From assembly GCA_010094045.1 (NCBI GenBank), contig ML986671.1, forward strand, positions 124,001 through 188,000: DNA of 64,000 bases. The letters are read 5' to 3'. Positions 20,436 to 58,000 of this stretch are shown here, piece by piece (position 1 is the first letter of the stretch; each line of letters starts with the position of its first letter). Under the pieces are notes generated by a model. It was not told the DNA's origin, did not search any database, and saw only the letters and a program-made list of their open reading frames with translations. The DNA comes from Lojkania enalia. Its lineage: Eukaryota > Ascomycota > Dothideomycetes > Pleosporales. The position numbers and the translations under genes are program-made.

Positions 20436-22060
20436 TCACCCAAATGCGATCCAGCCAACCCCAGCACCATAGCATAGACTGTCACTCCACGAATTAACAT
20501 TCCACTGAAAACCTTTCTCAGTCTCGTCGCTGGCAAAAGCCTTGAAACGAACATTCCTTGCAGCATCAAAATCTAGTCGATTAATCGCAACATAAACCTT
20601 TGGCACCTTATCATAGAGGGTGTTGTATGTCAACTTATGTCCATTGTTCAGTTGGGCAGGATACCAATCCCGATGGTGACTAGTGTCATCATTACCGCTA
20701 GTTACCCCATCCTTGGATGATGGATAGGCAATCCAAGTTGCCGTGGCACCATGAAGAATACTGTCGGACCAGGTATCAATATGGATATCAAAGCCATCTG
20801 GCTTGATGTTGTCGGCATAAGCGGCGATGCGTATGTTGCGTTCTTTGGACATGTTGAGGCTAGAAAGCCAAACAATAATCTTTGGTTCTTCTTGATACGC
20901 GCTGGAAAAGGTGATATGCATTGAGTTCGTCTGACTTGGTGGTGCCACAACTTTATAAGTGCCCACTGCAACTTAAATTAGGCGTCTTATAAGTATTCAA
21001 ATTGTGAAAGTGGCATACCTTGGTAGTCTGAATCATTTTGATCAAATTCGACCCAGGTTGCACCCCCAGAGTACAACGCAGTATCGTCCCAAGCATCGAT
21101 TCGAACAATAAAGTCCTTTGTTGTAACACGATCAGCAAATATTTTGACTCTAACGTCGTGCGCTTCGTCTATATCAAGTTCATTTAGCCCCAGCGCAAGC
21201 TGAGGCTTTGTGAGATATTCAGTGTTAAACAGAATCTGCTTTGCATTGAGGGCTACTGGTGGAAACCAGTCACGGGCTTCCCTTGTGCTCCATATGCCGG
21301 AGGAACGGGTCTGGAACGGGTAGATCATCCCGATGAATTCCTTGTCGGTTGGTGACAGGATGACGTTGTTCGATGAACCTTTCCCATCAGTGGTCAGCTC
21401 GGGAGGGAAGAAGTAGAGCATGATGGAGCGATCATCAAATGCAGATGCCCGTGTCGTTGCAATGTCGTATTTGGAGAAAAGATTCCTGTCAACATCTCCG
21501 GGGGGCCAGTAATTTGGTGGTCCAGCAAAATATTCATAGACCTTTGACTTATCCCAATTGATCGTCACATTCGGGCTTTGATGTTCATGAATGCAGCCGA
21601 GGGCATGGCCAAACTCATGTATAATAGTGCGAGAGAACTCCTGATCCCTAGTGTTGTTGTCAAACCAGCCGAAGTTCATGGTAGGCTCGTTCTCAGGAAT
21701 TCTACTATTCGTGGTGCCAATATAGGACCATGATCCCTCGCCCCAATCAAATGAGATCCTAATGTCTGTAGGGCCGGACTCAACGAATCGAAAGTCGATG
21801 TTTGCGTACTGCTCCCATTGCTGGGCGTAGAACATAACCTTATTGCGAACCTTTTGGCTGCCACCACGTAGAAATTTGACACGAAGTCGCTTGCCATTTG
21901 GCCAGAAAGTTTCGATTGGCATGGCAAGACTGCCTGATGAGGATAGAGATGATAGTAGATTCGTCTGCGGAGCATCTTTTGGAATGCGTGCCGTACATAT
22001 ATGGACCTTAGAGCGATCCATGGTCATGTGTCTAGTGTAGAAACTAAATACACAGAGCAA
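20436..22060 (-). CDS. Metzincin-type zinc protease with three H-type lectin domains
   Basis: Two exons: 21019-22060 and 20436-20965, intron 20966-21018 (53 bp, GTATGC...GCAG); 523 residues from the first Met, or 510-512 from the Met codons at 22027/22021, which I favour. The catalytic motif HEFGHALGCIHEH (about residues 148-160) is the extended HExxHxxGxxHE zinc site of astacin-like/metzincin peptidases, and SIMLYFF further on resembles the Met-turn. Three repeats of about 85 residues follow, each with a GLNELDID/WLSSLNMS/AINRLDFD-type strand and a DAWDDTALYSGGATW-type ending (DTWSDSILHGATATW; NSWSDSLCYGAGVGW). These match the H-type lectin fold that binds GalNAc. No signal peptide is evident, so it may be cytosolic or use a missed upstream exon. 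A plausible role is cleavage of glycoproteins targeted by the lectin repeats. Confidence 0.87.
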
Positions 22061-24929
22061 GCCTCAGAATGAATAATTGTGTTCAGAAGTTATAAGGATA
22101 TTTGCACGAGGGTTATTTCAATATTTGGGAGGCGCTAATTCCTTTATACAATACGGAGGACGGGATCACGGCAGGTGTACGATTCAGCTAGCCACAGCAT
22201 CAAACCATATTCAGAGCACATCGTGCTTAGCTGACGCTAGACACGCGACTCTCCACATGCCCCCCTACACATACGCAATGTGGCTTTATAGGTCTGTTGC
22301 CTTTATTTAATAGGTTTTGTAGTGCCGAAAGGACATGCTGGGTCTGCGGTAATAAGCTAGATCAAAACATGAGGCGCCCCGGCTTCACCGGTAAAACTGC
22401 ACAAGCAGGGACGGGAATTGCCGGTGTGCAGCTGAGAAAGTATGAAAGAGCGGCGCGCAATACGGAAGTGAGGTTTTCCACCCAGCTGAAGCATCTGTGG
22501 TCTCTCGGTTCGTTGGCGATATCATTGGATAGACCATTCGCCCATGTTGAAACGCTCTATTGCTATTATCACCCGCTCTCACTATGTGATATAGCTTCCT
22601 ACACGGAAATCTCTGTATATAAAGAGGTCAGCTATCCTCTTCAAACAATCAATATAGTTCTTCACATCTCTTTGACACCTGCTTAGTTGATCGCTGCTTA
22701 CTATCCCAGAGATATTGACTGCTAACTTCGTAGGAAATAATAGACTAGATGTGATTTCGAAGACCATGTTGCGCAACTGTATAAGAGATACTGTGTTAGA
22801 GACTATTTACATCTCATTCTTCTTTATCGGGAGGCTCATATTAAAATACTAAAGGTGTAGAGTGTGAAAAGTCACGAGTTTCCTGGGCTATATCCATTGA
22901 CCATGATTCTCGAGACTACCTTTGCCCTAAATATGAATATCCTGCCATTTCTAATTTATCAGCTCCCATCAGTCTCAGAACTAGCATACAAGTGAGTGAC
23001 AAAAGGGGCGACAATTCAGGATATGATGGCGTTTCTTGTTGCCACCTGCAGTGCGTGAGTGCTGTCAGAACCAAAATTCGCTGGTCAGACGGTACGCAGC
23101 TACAAGAATTGAAAAGGCGAGCCAAGTCCCTCGCTAATCGGAGGACAGCGGAGATATAGCTGAGAGGGTTCAGCTGAGTAGTGTGGCTGCCTGGAAAAAA
23201 AAAATAAAGTAAAATATAATATTACCAAAAGCAATCGTGTCCGGATTGGTATTTTGGGGGTTTCTCGCTTCGATAGACTATCGATCACAACCTCCTGCGA
23301 CATACAAAGTACTATTCCGATGATTTCATCTATCGCCGACAAGATTGTGAATTGCTAATTCAATAGTCTTCTATGGTCCTTGAGAGTTACTCGAATAGCC
23401 TGGGAAGATTGATGGCTTGCGTCTGGCAGCTATTAAATTACCAAAATTGAATGGCCTAGGCTCGATTGTATCCCTATTGTGGTATAGTGGTATGGCTTGA
23501 AGATTTCACTCGAAGATCAATAGTCTGGATTTTCATGCCAAAGCTGTGGGCTTACGGGCGAGCGGGACACAAACATTAATAGGTCGCTTTTGCAGAACCA
23601 GACGGAGCCCTCATGAAATCTAGAAAGCTGCCAGATATAAGCGCTATCTTCATCAATACCATGCCGCTCAAGAGCTCGTGCTTCTAATGATGTTGCTATT
23701 GCCTTCGTTGCGTGATGGACCCGGCAAATCGGCGACACGGCACTTGTTCATTTCATAAACATGCGTTAAGCATGTATCCATTCAGTCGTTATTCTGAGAG
23801 TACGCTGCTAGTACGCTGTGATCTGCAGGCGGCAAGCATTGACATGAATGGTTCGCTAATTTTACTTTGTGGAGTATGAGACTTCAAGAAGCCCCCAAAA
23901 AAGCAAAGCAAACGTTATTCGATGATCTACGTGGCTGCATGCCCCACTCGGATGCCGAAGATTAGGTCTGATTTGTCCTAAACCTGATCAGCTGAATCTC
24001 AGCTGAATACCGTAGTCAACCTAAGCAGAATTGTGCTAGGGAGGCGTTGGGGGAACTTCGCGTTCGTTATCTAGATCTACTATCCCTGTTAGCCATCGAT
24101 GATACCTCGTCGTTCATGTGCGTTTCCAGCATCGGTTGAACCTAGAAATTACTTTTTCTAGACTCTATCAGCTTCTTCGTTTGTGATAACTAGGCTATAG
24201 ATCCAAGCACGTTCGCGTGACTGATTGATAGCTTGCTATTCGGTCATACGGAATCGAGCACACCTGGTAGGATCCGTATCTGATTGTCTGGCTAGCGCTT
24301 TCGTTACAATATGAACCGCAAATATCACGATACGATCGATTTTGAGTATTTTGGCAGTAATCGATTTATTGCTTACAAAAAGATGTATAATAATATCCTC
24401 TCTAGCCGGCAATTAAACCAAGGTTGATATTCGCCCATTTAGTTTCTTAGCCATCAAGTATATTTATCAATAAAAATTCCGGCCACTTGCGCTTCCACAC
24501 TCAGTGTCTGCTTCTTCACACTAACCTTTATCACACTATAGTCTTCTTGGCTAGTAAATTACACCCGAAAATGTGTCACATGTTTCTACTATCCTATTAT
24601 AGTTGGTCTGTTTTCAGGCCTATATAGTCTCGCCATTGCCAGCTTCTAGGGAAGCCGGCCACTTAACCTCCTTCAATACATCAATATTTGCCTCAGCAAT
24701 TGATGCTCCCTGATACGTGACAAAATGTCCCCGCTTTGCTGGTCAATGACAGTCTAAGATGCCCTATCGTCTAGTCATTTACAGCTACTAAAACCGTAGC
24801 ATATTCCTCGACATTCTATTTACGCTCTCATATAATCACTATTTGGGAGCCTGATCCTTTCTGATCTCGGATTCTTTTAAAATCGAAATTGAGGAATAAC
24901 ATCATTGGGTTCGAGTGTCGCTCTTTGAG
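22061..24929. other. Gene-poor, AT-rich region with one LTR-like element
   Basis: No supported gene. Several short frames (for example 22297-22686) have no family resemblance. The repeat copy at 24574-24722 lies near the right end. Confidence 0.5.
24574..24722 (-). mobile_element. LTR-like element, copy B (149 bp)
   Basis: Ends TGTCACATGTTTC and GATACGTGACA on the + strand, flanked by a perfect 5-bp duplication AAATG/AAATG (24569-24573 and 24723-24727). Contains the TATA-like CTATATAG block (on the minus strand, ACTATATAGGCC). Confidence 0.88.
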
Positions 24930-30924: not shown

Positions 30925-32904
30925 TCATAACGATGCAGTCCGCATATCATTAACACCTTCAAGATGATACAATGGCTCCAAATTAGCATTCTTCTTCCAA
31001 AAAACATATCTCTTAATCCACCACGGCAACCAAGTCCGAATCTGGTAGGCCATATGCCTGCGAGTCGGGACGCCAAAGATGAAATCGAGTTCCTCAAGTG
31101 TGCGTTGCCTATAGTTCACTCTTTAGTAACCGCCCTCTATCGAAAGCTACATCTGGGCGGATTAAGTAACTTACATAGTCTCCGGCACCAAAAAGAAGAT
31201 CATCAAGAATGCGAGTATATTGAGTCCAGCGTAGAATGAAAAAGCACCCGTTGGTGTAATCTTAGCCAACAGTGATGGGAAACTTAATGTTAGTGCTGAG
31301 CCAACAGCATTGTTGACGCAGATAGTAAAAGCGGCGCCAATTTCGCGATGAGAAAGGGGAAACGACTCTGAGAAGTAGATCGAAGGAAGTGGCCCCATGC
31401 CTAAGCAAGGTGTCAGCATCTATATACCGATGCTCGATATTTCAAGACGAACAGGGAACTTACCAGGCCCGTAGAGCGCCGTGAAGAGGAAGATAAAGAA
31501 GGCGATGAGCGGGACTCTGGCGGGATTGCTCTCGTTCATGAGGAAGCAGAACCCTGCTGCCAACAAGCTCCATGCCATGTTAGGGAACGTGGTGAGTAGC
31601 AGGTTGCGCCGACCGAAAGTATCCATCGTATACACAGCTGGGATCGCAAAGACGAACATGATGAGTCCATATCCCATTGAGACAAGAAGACATTCCTTCG
31701 GACTATATCCTGCCTCGGCGAAAATCGTTGAAGAGTAGAATGCCATGATGTTAATGCCAGAAAACTGTTGCGAGATGACAATAACAGCGCTGCCGACTGT
31801 CGCGCGGCGAAGACGGGGTATAGTGAAGAGATCCAGCACACGACGGCCGAGAGAAATACCGGCAAATGCATTGTGCTCTTCAGCGATCTGACAGTGAGCA
31901 TAATACATCTCTCGGGCGGCGATGACCTCACTATTCCGAACACGCTTGAGAGATCTGAAAGCGTCCTGATACCGCCCTTTCTTCAGCAGCCATCTTGGAG
32001 ATTCTGGACAAAACCAGACGAAGATGCAAATCGGGATAGCAGGTGCAAAAGCAGCGGCGAGCTGGAAACGCCAGGCATTGTCACCAATGCGGAAGAAGAT
32101 GAGGTTCGAGCATTGTCCGACGAAGATTCCAAACGCAACCCATAGCTGGAAACTGGTAACCATACCGCCTCGGATAGAAGCTGGCGAAATCTCGGCACTG
32201 TAGACTGGGATTGTAGAGATCTTGATGCCCATACCGAGACCCATGAAAAGACGACAGAGAAGCAGTCCCCACCAATTCTGTGTAAATGCCTGAGCAAGCA
32301 CTGGAAAGATACAAAATAGGCCCGTAACGAAGATAGCCCCGCGTCGGCCGAGATAGTTGTTTACCGGATCCGCCGCCCATGCGCTGGCCAGACCAAAGAG
32401 TGTTGGACCGGAGTTGATCACTCCTACAAGCCATGTATTGTCCGCAATTCCAAATTCTTGAGGGAATGACAAGTTTGCGCCATTTGCACCAGTGTTATCC
32501 CAGCCTTGTATGGCCGAACCGAGAGAACACAGTGCAATGGCAAAGTACAAGTCCTTAGGTAGATGCCATCGATGAGTCCTCTCGCGTCGAATATGGTATT
32601 TATCTTCCTCAAGCAACTCGTGGATCTCTTCAAAGTCTTGGGGATTCTGGGCGGCTAGTGCGCCCCTCCAGAACTCTTCAACTTTGTTCTGGAAGCCCCA
32701 CGATTCGCAGAATGCTTCCACTTTGCTACGGAGTCGATCCTTTGGAATGCCAGCGAGGGGGTTGACGATCTTAGCATTCACATTTCGAGCATAGTCGAAG
32801 GCAGCGTCGAGGCTTTCTGTGTGGATGACTTCCTCGTCCTTTAGGCAGTTAGAATGAGCAGAATGAATGCTGGGGGCAGCCATGATGAGGATATTTGAAG
32901 ACAA
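30925..32904 (-). CDS. MFS sugar-porter family transporter
   Basis: Three exons on the minus strand: 31464-32904, 31175-31400 and 30925-31108 (introns 64 and 66 bp, joining ...LYGPG|MGPLPS and VPETM|QRTLEE); 616 residues. A second Met at 32883 is a possible start. After a soluble N-terminus of about 120 residues, twelve hydrophobic segments can be followed from DLYFAIALCSLGSAIQGWDN to FYAGLNILAFLMIFFLVPET. Sugar-porter motifs are present: NNYLGRRGAIF, the signature PESPRWLLKKGR, the QQFSGIN motif of helix 7 and the VPET end of helix 12. A conserved C-terminal tail QRTLEELDFIFGVPTRRH is seen. Plasma-membrane proton-coupled sugar or polyol uptake is the likely role; the substrate is unknown. 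It diverges from the transaldolase gene, which suggests shared regulation in sugar use. Confidence 0.9.
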
Positions 32905-33889
32905 GGAGTGGCTCTAGTCGATGAAGCAAGTAAGCCATACCTTGCGGCGACGAAGATGGCCTTATATAGGATTGTAGGGTTGGCATCGGGCGTGAGGCGA
33001 CCCCTAGAGCCGATCTCCAAACCATGCCCTGTGTGCGTCCCAGGCATGGTTTTTTCATCCCGGGATGACACCAAAAGGGGCATCACTCGCGGATATAGGC
33101 AGCATAACGTGACATCTTGATCGTGTGATTACCCGAAGTAGTTTAGGTTAGATTCGAAATCTGGGGAACCCCGCGGGGGTTGTTCCGATGCCTTGATGGT
33201 GGGAATAAGAACCTGGAACCTCCAACCGCCGGCACGTGGCCCTGTGTGAGCGATCTCATCGCTGAGGCGGCAATGACTCGCCTTAGGTCGGCAAGGCATG
33301 AGAATTGGACAATCATTTACGCGGTAGACGCATTGATATCCCGGATGGCCCAACATAACGGACTAAGCATGGCATATGATAATCGTTGAAAGCGCGTCGT
33401 TCGAACAATCTGTGAGCTCAGTAACGGCACCCGTTCCGATAGCCTCTACCATGGCCCTCATGATCTTCCTCTTCCTACGTAGGAAGGACAAGAGAAAAAT
33501 CCATTGTTAGTGCAAAAGTATCGGGATAATTCGCCGAAAACAAGACCGAGCCCCACAGTTGCCCTGTGTGCAACACGCGCCATGTTTGCCGTGCCCTGTG
33601 TGCAACACCTCGTGAGCATGCTGTCATCATTGGATGTTCCGTGCTGTTTAATCCCCTCGCCGATGAGTCGACGTTTGAGGGCTTTCTGTTGGAGAACAAT
33701 GAGAAGGGATCCACATAAGCTCCGCAATGCCCTGTGTGTGCGCGTTCCACCCAGTGGAGCGCGTGTGATGTCGCCAAAACAGAGTAATGCAAATATATAG
33801 CTCAAGTGATGCTGCATGCACGGCAGCAACATTTCAATTCCTTCATTATATCCAACATTCTAGTATACAAGAGACTTTAAACCGACAAG
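32905..33889. promoter_or_regulatory. Divergent sugar-transporter/transaldolase promoter
   Basis: 985 bp between the two start codons. TATA-like sequences lie at 32961-32969 (TATAAG on the minus strand, about 60 bp from the transporter start) and at 33790-33800 (AATATATAG, about 90 bp from the transaldolase start). Five + strand copies of GCCCTGTGTG occur at 33026, 33239, 33561, 33593 and 33729; the second directly follows a CACGTG E-box (33233-33238). CTGGGG (33162-33167) and GCGGGG (33173-33178) fit the CreA consensus SYGGRG, and there is an AGGGG stress-type element at about 33074. Inverted repeats: ACCATGCC..GGCATGGT (33021-33050) and CATCCCGGGATG (33056-33067). Confidence 0.65.
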
Positions 33890-35153
33890 ATGGGCAGCAT
33901 CGGAACGCAATCATGGCTTCAGAAGCTCGAGGAGCAGTGTAAGACCCTCGTTAAATCTACAAAGATTGCGAAAAGGGGCTGACAGATGATAGTGAACGTT
34001 GACGTTGATTGGATGGATCCGGAGTTCTCCAAGCGAATGCAAAATGAGTTTGGAGTAAAACCGAATGATATGACCAGCAACAACCTTTGGGTCAACATTC
34101 AGATGTCCCATCCCGACAATAAGAAGCTTTTCGATCGTACAGTAGAAGAGCTCAAGTCTGAAGGATGGTTGGCCATCTACAATCGCATCGCTGTCGGACT
34201 GTGCAAAGCGAACATTGATAACATCAAAGGCCGCGTCGCTCTGCAGGTCAACCCACACAAGGCCTACGACGAGCAGGCCGTGCTCGACCATGCGCATGCG
34301 TATGCCCGGGAATTCGAAAGGGCGGGTATTCCAAAGACAAAATATTTCATCAAGATTCCATCCACAGGCCCAGCGCTCAACGCCGCCCCAAAGCTAGAGG
34401 CTGGAGGAATTCGAACTTTGGGTACAGCACTATTCAGTTTACCGCAGGCTATTGCATGCAGTCAAGCTGGAATGCTGTATATTAGCCCATACTACAATGG
34501 CAAGTGACTGCTCTTGTTTCCGTGGGAAAGAAAATATTAAACCGCTGCAGAAACCCGTGCGCATGACGACCTTAGCCTTTGGCCTGATGTAGAAGATCCC
34601 GCTACACAACACACTATGTCTGCCCGTGTGGTCCAGATTCTCGATACATATAAGCGATTGTACAAGGAAACGGGCAAGGAGCAGCCGCTCCTAAAGAACG
34701 CGAGGTAAGTGAAATGCTCTCCAAGTTAAGAACTGAATTGCTGACCGCAACAGCTTCATCTCACCTAAGGAGGCTATGGCCGCAGGAGAGATGGGTTGTC
34801 ATTCTGCCACCATCTCACACATGGTGATCGAGCAGCTCGCAAAGTTACCGTATGATGGTTCCAAGCAGCCCGGGGAAGGCGTTCCAAAGCCGTTACTGTA
34901 CTATAAGCAGGGAGGGCCAACTCCAGAGCGACTAAAGAAGCTTGCTAGCGTCGATCCTTTGGCAGCTGCTGATTGGGATGGCAAACTCGCTAGCACGGAT
35001 ATTGACTACCTTGCCAACAACGGTGCGGAGCTTGATAAAGCAATAAAGAACGATCCGATCACGGCCGAGAGATTGGATATTGCGCTGAAGCTTTTCCAAG
35101 GCGGCATTGACGAGAGCAGAGCTAAGATCAAAGCGGCCATGGGAAAAGAATAA
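33890..35153 (+). CDS. Transaldolase family protein
   Basis: Four exons: 33890-33938, 33993-34499, 34551-34704 and 34754-35153; 369 residues. Introns 1 and 3 are GT-AG (54 and 49 bp). Intron 2 (34500-34550) starts GCAAGT, a GC-AG intron. Junctions read KLEEQ|LNVDVDWMDP, SPYYN|ETRAHDDL and LLKNA|SFISPKEA, all as in fungal transaldolases. The Schiff-base lysine lies in TKYFIKIPSTGPAL, with NPHKAYDEQAVLDHA upstream and GTALFSLPQAIACSQAG downstream. Transaldolase interconverts sedoheptulose-7-phosphate + glyceraldehyde-3-phosphate with erythrose-4-phosphate + fructose-6-phosphate in the cytosol. The LNVDVDWMD and DLSLWPDVEDP blocks mark it as one of the divergent fungal paralogues, not the canonical housekeeping TAL1, so its exact substrate may differ. 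Convergent with the bHLH gene. Confidence 0.9.
34500..34550 (+). other. GC-AG intron in the transaldolase gene
   Basis: 51 bp. The donor G|GCAAGT has near-perfect U1 complementarity apart from the C, and the acceptor is CTGCAG. Removing it restores ...YYN-E-TRAHDD in frame; no GT donor within reach does so without losing conserved residues. Confidence 0.8.
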
Positions 35154-35213: not shown

Positions 35214-36156
35214 TCATGTAGGAAAAGGCCGCTGAGAAGTGTTCGTCAAGTCATTATATAGATCATAGAGATTTGGGGGAACGTCGATCCCGGTAAAGGT
35301 GTCAATGGGTATTTGAACATTCTGAGTATATTGGAAGCCAAGACCACTATGTTCGTGAGAATGCATCTCAGGACCTGCAATATTCCCTGATAAGATTTGC
35401 GAGTGAACGAGAGGCTCCACGGTAGCCGGGCTAAAGCCCAATTGTTGTTGGCCCATCGTAGCTGAGCTAAGTAAATCAAAGCCTTCCTGGCCATCGAAGT
35501 AGGGAAGATTATCGAATGTGAAAGCGGTCTGATACGGAGCGGTGGTTGCCTCGGCGTCTGACTCGGCAGGAGTAGTCATTAACTCGTCGTTTTGTACTCT
35601 AGGCGGACGGAATTCGTGTGAGTTACTGTAGACCTCATCTAACCCTACTTCGTCTTGTTCCTGGTCATCTGGGGAACAACAATCAGTGGGGTTGTCACCA
35701 AATCCATTCGGGAAGGTCCCGAAGGTCTCATTCCCGGCGTTCATGAGGGTCTGTAAATGCTTGCCCACCGGCCTAGCCTGCCTTGGCGTGAAAGGAGCCC
35801 CACTAGCCGATCGCCACTGGTTCACCTCCGCAAGCAGTTCATCCCGCTCATGAATTAGGTGGGAGAGTTCATTTGCAGCAGATAGGCAAAGCTGTCTCTG
35901 GGAGTGCAACCGCGCAATGCTGTGATTCACAATTAGGTGCTTGTTGAGACGACGTGTACCAGCCAAGGATGGAACACGCCTTGCTAGATCCTGCATCTGT
36001 CAGCACAAGGGATACTACTAATAGCTAGTAGAGAACCTGGAGACTTCATACAATAAGGCTGTCGTTGAAAGCTTCACGTCTCGACTTCTCGAAAACACGA
36101 TGGGCGGCTCGGTCCTCCGAGGTCCATACCCGGGTGCGTTTCTTTTTGGTTACCAT
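35214..36156 (-). CDS. bHLH transcription factor
   Basis: Two exons on the minus strand: 36052-36156 (35 codons) and 35214-35996, intron 35997-36051 (55 bp, GTATGA...GACAG); 295 residues. The intron sits inside the DNA-binding domain. The basic region is TSEDRAAHRVFEKSRREAFN with His19, Glu23 and Arg27, the H-E-R triad that class B bHLH proteins use to read CACGTG. Helix 1 and loop: DSLIMQDLARRVPSLAGTRR; helix 2: LNKHLIVNHSIARLHSQRQL, continuing as a zipper-like helix to ELSHLIHERDELLAEVNQWR. The rest (residues 110-295) is acidic and rich in Ser/Pro/Gln, as in activation domains. It ends 61 bp from the convergent transaldolase stop. A CACGTG lies at 36614-36619, 458 bp upstream of its start, allowing self-regulation. 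It is the obvious candidate regulator of the adjacent sugar genes. Confidence 0.85.
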
Positions 36157-36900
36157 GGAGATGAGTCAGAAAACTCGCCACAAATGATGGCTCGGGCTTG
36201 ACGAGATGTTTCCGGAGGTTTGGATATCGGGGGTGATGTTAAGGTTGAGGAGATGCATGAATGGTGGAGAAAGACGCCAATCAACCTCGGAACCTCGGAT
36301 AGGCTTGGCCCGTTCACTTGGAATGAAGCATGACCACTTTTAGAACTATAAGGCAGCGGACAGAATTTCGAGTCTGCAGATTTATGATGCCTAGCTGTGT
36401 GGTATGTGCTGTGAGCATTTTTCTAGACCGCTCCACAATGGAATGGTCTTGGGCCCTGCATTCAGTAATAGCTAACTATAACTTCACCCATGGTTGAACG
36501 CAATATATTCGAAACTTTCTCGGTATATTTTATATTTTGAAGTTTTTTAGATTCTACTAGTATCTATCTTGGCAATAAAAGCCATGGGTTCGCTACGGGA
36601 GAGAAATATTGGTCACGTGCCCAGGTTCAAAATTTCATCTCCCTCGATTTTATTCTACAGAACTCGAGAGGGTCGAAACTCGGGCGAGGTGTGTTAAGAT
36701 CATAGAATATAATCATATGGAAGGGCTATCATGGCAATATCTACAGTGTCTTCTCTCTAATTGCGGGGAAGGCGTAAAATGAAGCTGACGACTTCATACC
36801 TAGTCGAAGGCTTAGGATAAGTAGCTTGGTAGGCCTATGACTCACTTAAAAATATAATTTATCCTATTTAAAAGGAAAATATACTCTAAAATCCCTTCAC
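36157..36900. other. Intergenic, promoter side of the bHLH gene
   Basis: No gene recognised. An E-box CACGTG is at 36614-36619; the rest is AT-rich. Confidence 0.5.
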
Positions 36901-52041: not shown

Positions 52042-55000
52042 TTAATTGATACTAGAAACGCCATACACCCTCGGAAGCGCTTTCTTGACTGTCTGAAAGC
52101 CTGCCCAATGTTTGATATCTTGCCCTTCTGTTGTCTTATCTGGGTGCTGACATATCCTCTTTTGATCTGTAAATCTGCCTATAAGCAGCCATCGAATCAC
52201 TAAGGGATGGTACTTTGCGAGTGATACCCCATTGAAATTCTGTCCACCTTTTTTTTCATAGCTTATCGCCGCACCTCTATGTACTAGTAACTTAACTGCT
52301 TCGAGATTACCGGCTTGACAGGCTCCCATGAGCGGCGTGCCAAATGGTCCACCCTCAAGCTCGATAATCGCACTAGCATCTAGGAGCAGAGCCACATTCC
52401 GACATGGCACTTGTGAGGCGGCTATGTTAAGAGCTGAATGCCAATTTTCACCCCGCGAGTTTATTAGGCGCTGGCATGTACTGTATGTGAAGCAGCGAAT
52501 GATACGTCTGAGAGGAGTAGCGAGATCGTTCGACATTTGCTGAAATATATTGCCCTTAGCTTCAGTACAAGCCGTCAAGTCGTAATCCTCATTGAGAAGG
52601 TATGTGTCCATTCTCGTAGAGGATGCGAATGCCTACTGAACATAGGGGCCGCCGTCAAAAAATACGGAATGAAGACAATATCGATCTTCTCTGAAAAAGA
52701 GAAGTGCCGATGGTTTCCCACAAGATATAGCATGCCACAGACAAGAAATTCCCTCATTTTCTAGGATGGAGAAGTCGGCTCCCGCATGGCGAAGACGCAA
52801 TATCACCTCCTCATTGTACGAGAGGAATGCAAGTATGACAGGTGTTTGAAGATATGCGTTGCGCGCATTAGGGTTGGCTCCGTTGCCGATGAGGGTTTCA
52901 ACAATTCTTAAGTTAGCTTCCTTAGCTGCGATGTGTAGAGGAGCGTCTCTCCGTGAGTTTGTACTGTCAGCAAGAGCACCATGCTTCAGCAAAATATCCA
53001 CAGCTTCATTATTTCCTACCCGGGCGGCGATGTGTAGTGGGACGCCATTTACGTCATCGGTCGAGCAGTTCGCCGATTGCCAGTGGGTGACCATGCCCAA
53101 TTCAAGTCTTCAAATTGTATTTGTGCTTCTAGAATGACTGATAGGTCTCTCCAGGAGTTTTCACCAGAATTCCGGGACTTTTTGGATTCAGTATCGGTCG
53201 GGGCTTTTTGATGACGTTGAATAGAATCTTCAATTAAATGAATCAATGCTTGATTATTAAAGCTTGCGACTGCGACATGGTTTGGGTGGACAGCAAAGCT
53301 GCGAAAATCTGGATCAGGCATTTGGTTCATCAAAGAGACAAGGATAGACCCGGGATATTCATCCAAAACTCCAAAATGAAACGGCGTATAACCTCTGGTG
53401 TTGCCAGATTTACAGTACTGTGCCTGTATATCTGCACCGTTCTCGATGAGGAGCTGGGCAATGCCAAAGTTTCCCTTGCGGAGGGCAATAATTAGGGGAG
53501 TACAAGTTCCAAACTTGCATCCTCCGCAGGTAGGCGATAATGGTAAACTTGTGTCGACAACGAGTGCAATTAGCGAACTGCATAGCTCCATGTCGTCTGT
53601 TTCTATAGCTACAGTTAATCCTGAGACAAATGCTCTTTTGTAGTAGCTACTAGGTTTACTCTCGTTTCGATCATTGTCACTTAGATCTACCACTACTGTG
53701 AGAGTTTGATATCTAGTGAAATATAGGGATTCATACTTTTCTGAAAAGAGTACTCGAGTATTTTCTTTGCGACATGCTTGTGGCCTTTTCTTAGTGCAGC
53801 AATATATGGGCTTTCCTTTGGGGAGTCCCTAATGCCAGCTCCTCCATTGTGCTTCAAGAGCATATTTACTATCTCCTCGTTCCCCGAATGCGCCGCGAAG
53901 TAAAGAGGGGTTAAAGCCCTAGTCGATTCAACATTGATACCCGCACCTCTGGCCAACAAATGCTTAGCACATATGTTGTGACAATTAATCACTGCATAAT
54001 GAAGTGCAGTCTGCCCAAATTTGCCTTGAGTATTGATATCCAATGTTTGTAAGGATGATGACGAATGTTCGACAAGCTCGCTTTCACTGTGGTAAGCGGG
54101 GAATCTTTGTTGTTCATCATTGCCTCCTTTCAATTTATCTACAGCCTTGGTACTGTCATTCAAGGTGTTTCGCAAACATCTGGCAACGAGGAATTCAACA
54201 ACATTATCATGCCCATATCTACATGCGAAGTGCAATGCGTTCTGGCCACTGTAATCAACCAAGCGGGGAGAAGCTCCCCGATCAAGGAGAGCTCTTAGGT
54301 GAACTAGTTTCCCCGATGTAGCGGCAGTCATGAGGGGCGTCCTGTTGTCCAATGATGTGCGTTCGTTTGGATCATACCCATGGTCCAATAGTAATGCTAA
54401 AGTATGTTTGTCCGTGTATCCCGAGCAGGCATAATTAACGAGCTCCATTGTATGACAGGGTTCTTGGTTTATGGTGTGATCTAGCATGTTACGAATAACT
54501 GTATTCTGGCTGTAGAGGCACGCGCTTTGCAGTCCGCACAATCGGGAAAAGGAGTCTGAGCCGCAGTCTTCCACAGAAAAATTCTTTCCCAAGAAGCGCT
54601 GATACAAATGATTCACGATTCAATCTACAAGCAAAATGAAAGACTCGGCTGCTGTGTTTGTGTAAAGTAGAGAGCTGGGGAACCACGATACAGCTGAGCA
54701 TGTTGATAAGAAACGAAGCAGCTTTGTCGAGGGAAGGCCAAGAGGACTGGGAACTAGACAACTCTTGTTCAGCAATCTCTAAAGTGAGTTCGAAACATGT
54801 CTTTCCTTCCCCATCCTTGAGAAGTGGATCGGTCCCAAGAGCCACGGAGGTATTAAATGTAGAGACCTCTATCATGGAGAAAGAGGAGCAAAGATTGTGA
54901 ATTGGGAACCGATTATCCTTATCCATTTTGACAACCACCTAATCAGAGATCAAGAGCTGTATAGTCTGTTCCAATCTGATAGGGTCAGGAGATTCTAGAG

Positions 55001-58000
55001 GCTTTAGCACGTGTAGTGCGGTTTTTCCATTCTTGCGAACGGCCAATCTACCCCCTTGGCCAATATTACCTTGATACTCTCAGGGGAGGAGGAAGCCGTT
55101 CTCTAGCCAGTGATGAATGGCTGTCGAGCTATCTTCCGTCAAGAAACATGAATCTGCTCCAAGTTCGATCAATAGGTTCAAAGCCTTCACGTACTGTGCC
55201 TCTAGAATTTGGGATGATGACTGTCTCAAGAGATGGTCCCCCGGTTTCCTATTGAAGACCAACGCGCCAAATAAATGAATAGGTGTGCATCTATTTGACT
55301 TAGTGGCAGAGAGCGATATTTGGGGATCGGGATCGTACTCCGAGAGTGCCCTAATCATCCTCTCGTTACAGCTAGCGGATGCGAAGTGCCAGGACGTCCA
55401 GCCTTGCGAATCTGCTAAATAATATCGTGATCCTACTTCGAGCAAAATTCTGGCCTTCGTTGCCGTTAAATCCTGTGAAGATAATGAAGAGCAATTCGGC
55501 GTTCATCAGTCGCTCGGTGGGGATTCGCACCAAAATCCAAAAGGCATCTAACCAATTCAGGAGAGCCATAAGCTGCAGCTACGTGTAATAATGTAGCTCC
55601 AGTCACGTTCAGTTCCTTATCTTCAATGTTTTTCTGAAGATCGACTTTGCAATGTTCCATCAGGGCCTTTACTACTTCGACATGGTTATACTTGACAGCT
55701 AGCTTTAGGGCTACCCAATGTTCTTCCTTGCCACCAGAGAACACCGAATCAATTTGTGCTATTTCGTTGGCATTTATTCCTGTATAATTGGTCATTAGGC
55801 AAAGCTTGGAGAAGCTAGCCTTAGTGGCTCCTGTAAGATGTTGGACTGCTATCGCATCCAGGATTGGAGTCATGTCCCCTGGACAATCACAAGATGCTTC
55901 TAATCCTTTTATTAGGTACTGTAACGTGTCTTGATCAATGTATGCTCCGGCCTTGAGAAGTGGAATTAGTCTCGAAGAGCTTATCCTAGCCGCAAGTTTT
56001 AGAGCTGCGTCCTGAAATATAGGTCCTGATCTGCTTTCTAAGTCTGCCTTGGATCGAAGCAAAAGCTCAATAATCCGAGAGTATTGAAACTTCATCTCCT
56101 CATGTCTTTGATTTACATGAGTCAAGGATGGCTCATAGGGCGTCATCGGAATACTGCCGGGTGGCGGTGGCGGCGGCGGTGGTGGTGGAAGAAGCTCAAG
56201 GGACTGGCTCGGATGCCTTATATGGTTAGTGACGAAGTAACTTCCGCTGTCTCCAGCTATGGCGAGGTGTAACGGCTGGCCCAGGTCACTGATCTGGTTT
56301 GGTGAGCAACTGGATTTTAATAGCCAGGAACATAGCTCCACATCATGCAGCATAGCAGCAAAGTGCAAAGGCGTGAGAGTCTTGATCAAAAGAGTAATAA
56401 TGACAAAATCATCGACTAGCCTTGCTTCCTTATCTTCAAGATAAAGTGGGTAGGCAGACCAGAACGAATGCTGCACTAAGGAGAAAAAATTCCCTGACCC
56501 TCTGGGATGCGTTAAGCGTTGAACAAGTAATCTAGATACGTCATCGGGCCAATTTGAGCGCCAGTAGTATGACCGGTAGGTAACACAGTGGCTCTTGAAC
56601 GTATAAATGTTGTTGAGCCTTTCCCACTCGACTAAGCTCTGGGCAGGGCCTTCCTCGGGTTTTCTGTGGTTAAGATAGGTGAGGCATATCTTCGATAGAT
56701 CAAGAGTGCTGCTCTCTTCCTCCATGTAGTAGGAACTTAGCTTTGGGAACCGCTTGGGATCGAGGCTAGAAAAGAACTCTTTCACAGTGAAGTGAGCCAG
56801 CTCATATCCATAAGGTGAAAGTCGAATCAGGCTACTACAGCATCTAAGAACTTCGTCGTCCTCAGGGACAGAATCCAGGTCTAAGTCTTCATCGCCCAAA
56901 TTAACAGAAATGGCTTGGTATAGCTCGGGTGCAGATAGTGGTGCTTGGGAATAGATTAACCATTTTAGAGTTCTTCTGACAATTCTCTGAATGGAAGGAT
57001 CACGATCGTTTAGCCGTCCGAGTATGCGCTCATAAGTTGCGTTCAGATCTGGTGGGAGAGAAGCCAAAGCTTGCCTACGTTCACGATCGTTTAGTAACTC
57101 GCACAGATAATCGATCTGACATGTGACCCATCGAAACCTATTAATTCTGTCAGCCCACGATATTTCCAGAAAGGGATTATTATATTATAGCGTACATTCC
57201 ATCGGCTCCATTGACTAGTTTCTCCATTATATGTTGTCTCAGTTCGTTGGACTTGAGACGTAGTCGTTTAGTTCTAATCCGCTGTTCTATGTCCGACGCG
57301 ACGTATAGTTTCAGATCGCTACTCTTCGCTGCAATAGAAACCTGTACGTATTCCTCTAAATTATCTCTTATGTGAAGTTCGTCTCGACTCAAGAAGAGAC
57401 TCTTAATGTTGGGTGTTATAGTACTAAGATTAACCAAAAGCTCGACAACTTGGACGGTAAATTTTCCGCATTCATCAAGGCCATCCACGAGGATTGCAAC
57501 GTCTTCAAAGTGTTGAGCCATATCCCGGATCAATTCTCGCAGAGCATGTTCGTTCGGCAATCTACCTAAGGCACCGTTGGGATTGCAATCTTCATAATAT
57601 GCTCTAAGTTTATCGAAGCACTGCTGGTATTGCTAGGCAATTTGACTCGCAATAGAGCCAAGGATATTCACTGGGTTCTGGCTTTCAGGATTCTTGTAGT
57701 CGCAATAGAAGAAAGCAACCCCATAATCTTTGCTGCATCTCTCCATAGCTTCTTCAATCACCAAGGAAGCAAGGACTGTCTTGCCCAGCGCCGGGCATGC
57801 CATACAGCCAGAGTCGGGAATTTCTTGAGATCATTCAATTCAGGAACTCATGACTTTCCGTTAGCCTAGTAGGGTTAGATTTCACAGTATTTAAAATACC
57901 TGGAACGTACCAGAGTCCCGTTCCCGGCTGTCTCAGCTTTAGGCCCATCTCATGATTTTGCTGGGGATTAACCTTAGGAAAGAATGCCAAAACTTTCTGC

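What the first reader, a model, noticed from the sequence alone, without database searches (positions are those of the whole stretch)
32905..33889. Five same-strand copies of decamer GCCCTGTGTG in a shared sugar-transporter/transaldolase promoter
Exact copies begin at 33026, 33239, 33561, 33593 and 33729, and I noticed none elsewhere in the window. A specific decamer is expected far less than once per kilobase. The copy at 33239 directly follows CACGTG (33233-33238), giving a composite CACGTGGCCCTGTGTG. Spacing and single orientation look like a regulator-binding array. The adjacent bHLH protein has the H-E-R residues for CACGTG.
Basis: partly seen in the sequence, partly recalled or inferred. 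Interest (0 to 1): 0.75.

Follow-up and report, generated by a model that had tools for sequence, protein, structure and literature searches.

The report
Repeated decamer in shared fungal promoter
In one fungus, the stretch of DNA between two back-to-back genes (a sugar transporter and a transaldolase) carries five identical 10-letter words that look like landing sites for a gene regulator; this is probably an ordinary kind of control switch with an unidentified regulator.

Summary
In detail: GCCCTGTGTG occurs exactly five times in the window, all on the + strand, at the stated positions. The genome (58.1 Mb, evidently Lojkania enalia, Pleosporales) holds 46 other copies, the closest two 15 kb apart. 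Chance is excluded: elsewhere in 264 kb examined no complex 10-mer exceeds three copies per kb, and 0 of 2000 simulations reached three. Flanks are unrelated except between copies 3 and 4; no second copy of the region was found. The outer copies lie 57 and 55 bp from the two genes' TATA-like hexamers.

Best reading: a homotypic regulator-site array in a bidirectional promoter. Linkage of the transporter, transaldolase and bHLH genes recurs in many filamentous ascomycetes, which makes the bHLH protein a plausible local regulator. But the decamer contains no E-box, and one CACGTG in 1 kb is weak evidence, so its binding to the decamer is not supported. Conservation at orthologous promoters, the decisive test, could not be run. 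New member of a known kind; modest interest.

The parts
33026..33035 (+). decamer copy 1 (57 bp from the transporter TATA-like hexamer; overlaps a 10-nt-arm inverted repeat)
33239..33248 (+). decamer copy 2, directly after CACGTG
33561..33570 (+). decamer copy 3 (shares 17 bp TGCCCTGTGTGCAACAC with copy 4; a CAGTTG at 33556-33561 overlaps it by one base)
33593..33602 (+). decamer copy 4, start 32 bp after that of copy 3
33729..33738 (+). decamer copy 5 (55 bp from the transaldolase TATA-like hexamer)
33233..33238 (.). E-box CACGTG, the only one in the intergenic region
32963..32968 (-). TATATA hexamer, 79 bp between it and the transporter ATG; putative TATA box, no transcript data
33794..33799 (+). 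TATATA hexamer, 90 bp between it and the transaldolase ATG; putative TATA box, no transcript data
33019..33052 (.). perfect inverted repeat, 10-nt arms, 14-nt loop, spanning copy 1
   Evidence: 2 of 200 mononucleotide shuffles hold such a repeat
30925..32883 (-). MFS sugar transporter gene, 609 aa, two introns; protein identical to CC78DRAFT_522784 of Lojkania enalia
   Evidence: the last coordinate was worked out by hand from the exon positions
33890..35153 (+). transaldolase gene, 369 aa, exons 33890-33938, 33993-34499 (GC donor), 34551-34704, 34754-35153
   Evidence: protein 100% identical to P0087 over 100%
35214..36156 (-). bHLH protein gene, 293 aa, exons 36156-36052 and 35990-35214
   Evidence: the start of exon 2 was set by homology, coordinates read by hand off

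Best explanation
The five decamers are a homotypic cluster of binding sites for one sequence-specific transcription factor in the bidirectional promoter shared by a sugar-porter gene and a transaldolase gene, so that sugar uptake and its entry into the non-oxidative pentose phosphate pathway are switched together. The outer copies lie promoter-proximally to each gene and the inner copies are shared. Shown: the array, its rarity, its boundaries, the divergent genes, the TATA-like hexamers. Inferred: that a protein binds it, that both genes respond, and that the factor reads about 10 bp with little tolerance (for example a zinc-finger protein). The neighbouring bHLH protein is a plausible second, local regulator acting through the single E-box.
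For: Exact copies far beyond chance. All ten positions identical in all five copies while flanks are at random identity (0.25 upstream and 0.27 downstream with pair 3/4 left out), as expected for constraint on the word itself. No second copy of the region found in the genome (that search skips simple repeats and very common words). Outer copies 57 and 55 bp from the two TATA-like hexamers; random placement gives gaps equal within 2 bp in 1.5% of trials, a post hoc test. Recurrent linkage of transporter, transaldolase and bHLH genes argues for joint control.
Against: No degenerate copies in the region, whereas natural site arrays usually hold some (recalled). No other cluster of exact copies in the genome, so no regulon is visible from exact matches. 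The outside copies show no common gene class: of 20 ORFs, one from each of the 20 loci fetched (of 46), 11 had a Pfam family over its cut-off, of mixed function, 2 only weak matches and 7 none; 5 of the 20 copies lie in ORFs of more than 190 codons. The listed papers that hold the decamer or its complement (20 of 55, 10 of 72) show no such fungal site in title or start of abstract. No expression or binding data.
Confidence: 0.6

Rival explanations
1. The adjacent bHLH protein itself binds the decamers (with a divergent partner, as ARNT-class heterodimers read asymmetric sites), together with the E-box at 33233.
For: Linkage of the bHLH gene with the pair; invariant H-E-R-R basic region; the only solved chain matched at E up to 0.01 is the bHLH domain of ARNT-like protein 1 (E = 0.0011; the profile still held my first gene model). 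The decamer ends in GTG, the half-site of such proteins (recalled).
Against: No CANNTG inside the decamer. The four CANNTG sites of the region touch copies 2 (adjoining) and 3 (one base shared) only, and their density is that of the window. No data on partners.
Confidence: 0.12
2. A neutral relic: a short word multiplied by local slippage or microhomology copying, without regulatory function.
For: Copies 3 and 4 share 17 bp at 32-bp spacing; the perfect identity and lack of degenerate copies would fit recent copying; one genome only, so constraint over time is not shown.
Against: Flanks of the other copies are unrelated and boundaries are sharp at 10 bp, save a T before four of the five; spacings 213, 322, 32 and 136 bp are not tandem; the word shows no sign of multiplying elsewhere in the genome.
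Confidence: 0.2
3. Part of a transposon or other repeat (subterminal repeats).
For: Same orientation of all copies.
Against: The 985-bp region matched only itself in the genome (with the limits of that search); within 32883-33890 no pair of inverted repeats brackets the array as transposon ends would (longest pair 18 nt, 78%; wider flanks not scanned).
Confidence: 0.04
4. An RNA-level element (5' UTR or non-coding transcript).
For: Copy 1 overlaps an inverted repeat.
Against: No Rfam match in the window at gathering score; the copies lie upstream of both TATA-like hexamers, hence probably outside both messages; no transcript data.
Confidence: 0.04

Closest known systems
GAL1-GAL10 divergent promoter with Gal4 sites (Saccharomyces)
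   Same: One intergenic region with several copies of one site between two divergent sugar-use genes (recalled; one search gave search listings only).
   Different: Gal4 sites are CGG-N11-CCG palindromes (recalled); here an asymmetric 10-bp word, and the factor is unknown.
niiA-niaD bidirectional promoter with NirA and AreA sites (Aspergillus nidulans)
   Same: Divergent pair of one pathway under a pathway-specific factor in a filamentous ascomycete (divergence and shared sites recalled; NirA consensus CTCCGHGG from passages of PMC3020322).
   Different: The motif is unrelated; NirA consensus sites are common (more than 800 genes with a site within 1 kb), while the decamer is rare.
Class B bHLH proteins that bind CACGTG (binding rule recalled)
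   Same: H-E-R-R basic-region residues in the linked protein; one CACGTG in the promoter.
   Different: The repeated word is not an E-box.

Membership tests
Homotypic transcription-factor site cluster in a bidirectional promoter | Several copies of one site, more than chance, in one regulatory region | tested here: met
   (that the word is a site is inferred)
Homotypic transcription-factor site cluster in a bidirectional promoter | Lies between divergently transcribed genes | tested here: met
   gene models; CDS starts 32883 (-) and 33890 (+)
Homotypic transcription-factor site cluster in a bidirectional promoter | Sites conserved in relatives | not testable with these tools
   the genome has no relatives in the genome search (output); the other DNA collections offered are viral, bacterial, archaeal, phage or plasmid, and metagenome scans are capped at 0
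Homotypic transcription-factor site cluster in a bidirectional promoter | A factor binds the sites and both genes respond | not testable with these tools
   needs the bench
E-box array bound by a class B bHLH protein | Repeated CANNTG/CACGTG core | tested here: not met
   decamer has no CANNTG; one CACGTG and four CANNTG in 1006 bp, at window density
E-box array bound by a class B bHLH protein | bHLH protein with H-E-R basic region | tested here: met
   invariant in the 18 sequences aligned; Pfam HLH 23.6 bits, cut-off 20.7
Dispersed repeat / transposon | Similar copies elsewhere in the genome | tested here: not met
   only self match
Known fungal sugar-regulator sites (XlnR GGCTAA, AraR CGGNTAAW, CGG-N8-CGG, CreA SYGGRG; all recalled) | Consensus coincides with the decamer | tested here: not met
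   none of the sites found lies in any of the five copies

The most novel reading that the evidence does not exclude
The decamer is the site of an as yet undescribed, nearly locus-dedicated fungal regulator: a factor whose only clustered target in a 58-Mb genome is the shared promoter of the transporter-transaldolase pair, in a gene group (with a bHLH gene) whose linkage recurs in Dothideomycetes, Eurotiomycetes and Sordariomycetes.
Probability: 0.15. Interest if true: 0.5.

Novelty: new member of a known kind. Interest (0 to 1): 0.33.

Why it matters
If the array is functional, it marks a testable switch that joins sugar uptake to the pentose phosphate pathway, in a gene group linked in many filamentous ascomycetes, with its own bHLH protein. 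Among the papers listed by four searches (15 of 219; 35: 1 of 1; 37: 15 of 37; 47: 8 of 55; titles and starts of abstracts only) none was about this group. It would give a concrete motif for finding the factor.

Tried and rejected
Transposon or dispersed repeat: rejected. Low-complexity or tandem origin: not supported. Known sugar-regulator motifs at the copies: none. Other words enriched in the region: apart from parts of the decamer the best were ACGCGC (4 copies, p = 1.5e-4 of about 2048 words) and ATCCCGG (3 copies, p = 1.1e-4 of about 8192), neither convincing. A coding repeat: not pursued; by arithmetic on the positions the copies fall in two different frames. A regulon through the other copies: 20 of 46 fetched with 10 kb each; Pfam on one ORF per locus, some more than 2 kb from the copy, gave no common class. 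One of them (L032) lies upstream of an alpha-L-arabinofuranosidase ORF, but one in 20 is no evidence. Degenerate clusters elsewhere: the one-mismatch search gave 1391 places against 1061 for the reversed control, but only about the first 100 were listed, so clusters could not be looked for. Searching the papers for the decamer and its complement gave 55 and 72 papers, of which 20 and 10 were listed and none opened. Conservation in orthologous promoters: not testable here. Lojkania enalia is named in no paper of the library.

My first bHLH model had two residues too many and gave no Pfam match; the alignment and the PDB search still used it. Note 2 gives the bHLH start as 36158; it is 36156.

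Full report
Observation. The whole genome (58,143,767 bases, 400 contigs; the window is C94:124001-188000) holds 51 copies, so 46 lie elsewhere; the word read backwards occurs 25 times. The two closest outside copies are 15,384 bp apart. At the outside rate, a cluster like this is expected about 2e-13 times for this word and about 1e-7 times for any 10-mer (Poisson, an approximation). As a harder control I scanned 264 kb of real sequence (the window and 20 loci of 10 kb, which were chosen because each holds one copy) for any 10-mer, low complexity left out, repeated within 1 kb: apart from this array and its overlapping words, the most was three copies; none of 2000 first-order Markov simulations of the region reached three.

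Organism and genes. The transporter and transaldolase proteins are identical to entries of Lojkania enalia whose contig length, 196,292, equals that of C94; this is a pleosporalean fungus. The transporter (609 aa, - strand, Sugar_tr) and the transaldolase (369 aa, + strand, TAL_FSA) are divergent, with 1006 bp between their start codons. Both reading frames are intact after splicing; one transaldolase intron needs a GC donor. A second transaldolase lies at C41:306811-307816 (one TAG in the matched frame, introns not excluded), with weaker matches with stops in frame at C222. Beyond the transaldolase, convergent with it, lies the bHLH gene.

Gene group. Homologue searches suggest that the linkage is old. 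Of 69 named bHLH rows (of 86), 6 share a contig length with both a transaldolase and a transporter row, 12 with a transaldolase row only and 9 with a transporter row only; 42 showed no linkage in the lists. Twenty contig lengths are shared by transaldolase and transporter rows, the window's own among them. Only the best 120 rows were shown, so these are lower bounds; on the other hand some contigs are megabases long and same contig is not adjacency. Locus tags are consecutive for all three genes in Cosmosporella (080940, 080950, 080960) and Aspergillus hancockii (011770, 011771, 011772), and for two of the three in Fusarium zealandicum, Rasamsonia, Aspergillus avenaceus, four Xylaria species, Metarhizium acridum, Cercospora berteroae and others. 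The classes of these fungi are recalled. Orientation of the genes in these species was not seen.

Anatomy of the promoter. TATATA hexamers lie at 32963-32968 and 33794-33799, with 79 and 90 bp between them and the two start codons; the outer decamers are 57 and 55 bp from them. Random placement of five sites gives gaps equal within 2 bp in 1.5% of trials, but I saw this before testing it. All ten positions are identical in all copies, and T precedes four of the five; beyond, pairwise identity falls to 0.25 upstream and 0.27 downstream when the pair 3/4 is left out. Copies 3 and 4 share 17 bp. Copy 1 overlaps an inverted repeat with 10-nt arms, seen in 2 of 200 shuffles. The region has no other match in the genome in a search that skips simple repeats and very common words; the window holds no tRNA and no Rfam match at gathering score.

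Who binds? The bHLH protein has an intact basic region (RAAHRxFExxRR; H19, E23, R26 and R27 invariant in the 18 sequences aligned), passes the Pfam HLH cut-off, and its profile matches one solved chain, ARNT-like protein 1, at E = 0.0011. That such proteins bind CACGTG is recalled knowledge. The decamer has no CANNTG inside. Four CANNTG sites lie in the region, at the density of the window; one (CACGTG, 33233) adjoins copy 2 and one (CAGTTG, 33556) shares a base with copy 3, while copies 1, 4 and 5 have none. CACGTG occurs once in the region and 13 times in the window, so a single one is weak evidence; another lies at 36614, 458 bp from the bHLH start. I therefore think that the decamers belong to another factor, with the bHLH protein as a possible partner at the E-box. 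The recalled consensus sites of XlnR, AraR, CreA and CGG-N8-CGG factors do not coincide with the copies; CreA-like SYGGRG words are about twice as dense in the region as in the window (six sites), which would fit carbon repression but is a small count.

Other copies. Five of the 20 lie inside ORFs of more than 190 codons. Of 20 ORFs scanned, one per locus, 11 had a Pfam family over its cut-off, from photolyase and inositol polyphosphate kinase to a GH92 enzyme and an alpha-L-arabinofuranosidase; 2 had weak matches and 7 none. I see no regulon in them, but 26 copies were not read.

Verdict. A real, non-random array, best read as a homotypic regulator-site cluster in a bidirectional promoter, of a known kind with an unknown factor. 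What keeps the score low is that nothing tests function or conservation here, and that such promoters are well known from GAL1-GAL10 (recalled) and niiA-niaD (recalled; search listings, passages of one paper). What keeps it above nothing is the perfect copies, the absence of a second cluster of exact copies in the genome, and the widespread gene group in which it lies.

Noticed in passing
window 33019-33052: Perfect inverted repeat with 10-nt arms and a 14-nt loop around decamer copy 1, followed by the 12-bp palindrome CATCCCGGGATG at 33056.
   Followed up: partly
window 32884-33889: Six CreA-like SYGGRG words, about twice the window density; would fit carbon repression, small count.
   Followed up: no
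window 36614: CACGTG 458 bp upstream of the bHLH start codon; could be a self-control site, or chance.
   Followed up: no
L032:5001 (G000:C30:92798): A single decamer copy 976 bp from a - strand ORF of an alpha-L-arabinofuranosidase, on its upstream side, with an unassigned 225-codon ORF between; a lead for pentose use, one of 20 loci looked at.
   Followed up: partly
L013, L014 (G000:C222:17605-18167): Weak transaldolase matches with stops in frame; a decayed copy or unspliced introns.
   Followed up: no
window 34500-34550: Transaldolase intron with a GC-AG boundary.
   Followed up: no
window 20987-22063: ORF with an astacin/matrixin-like protease domain and an H-type lectin domain.
   Followed up: no
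window 52633-53109 and 57180-57632: Ankyrin-repeat ORF and NPHP3_N ORF on the - strand, perhaps parts of one NLR-like gene.
   Followed up: no
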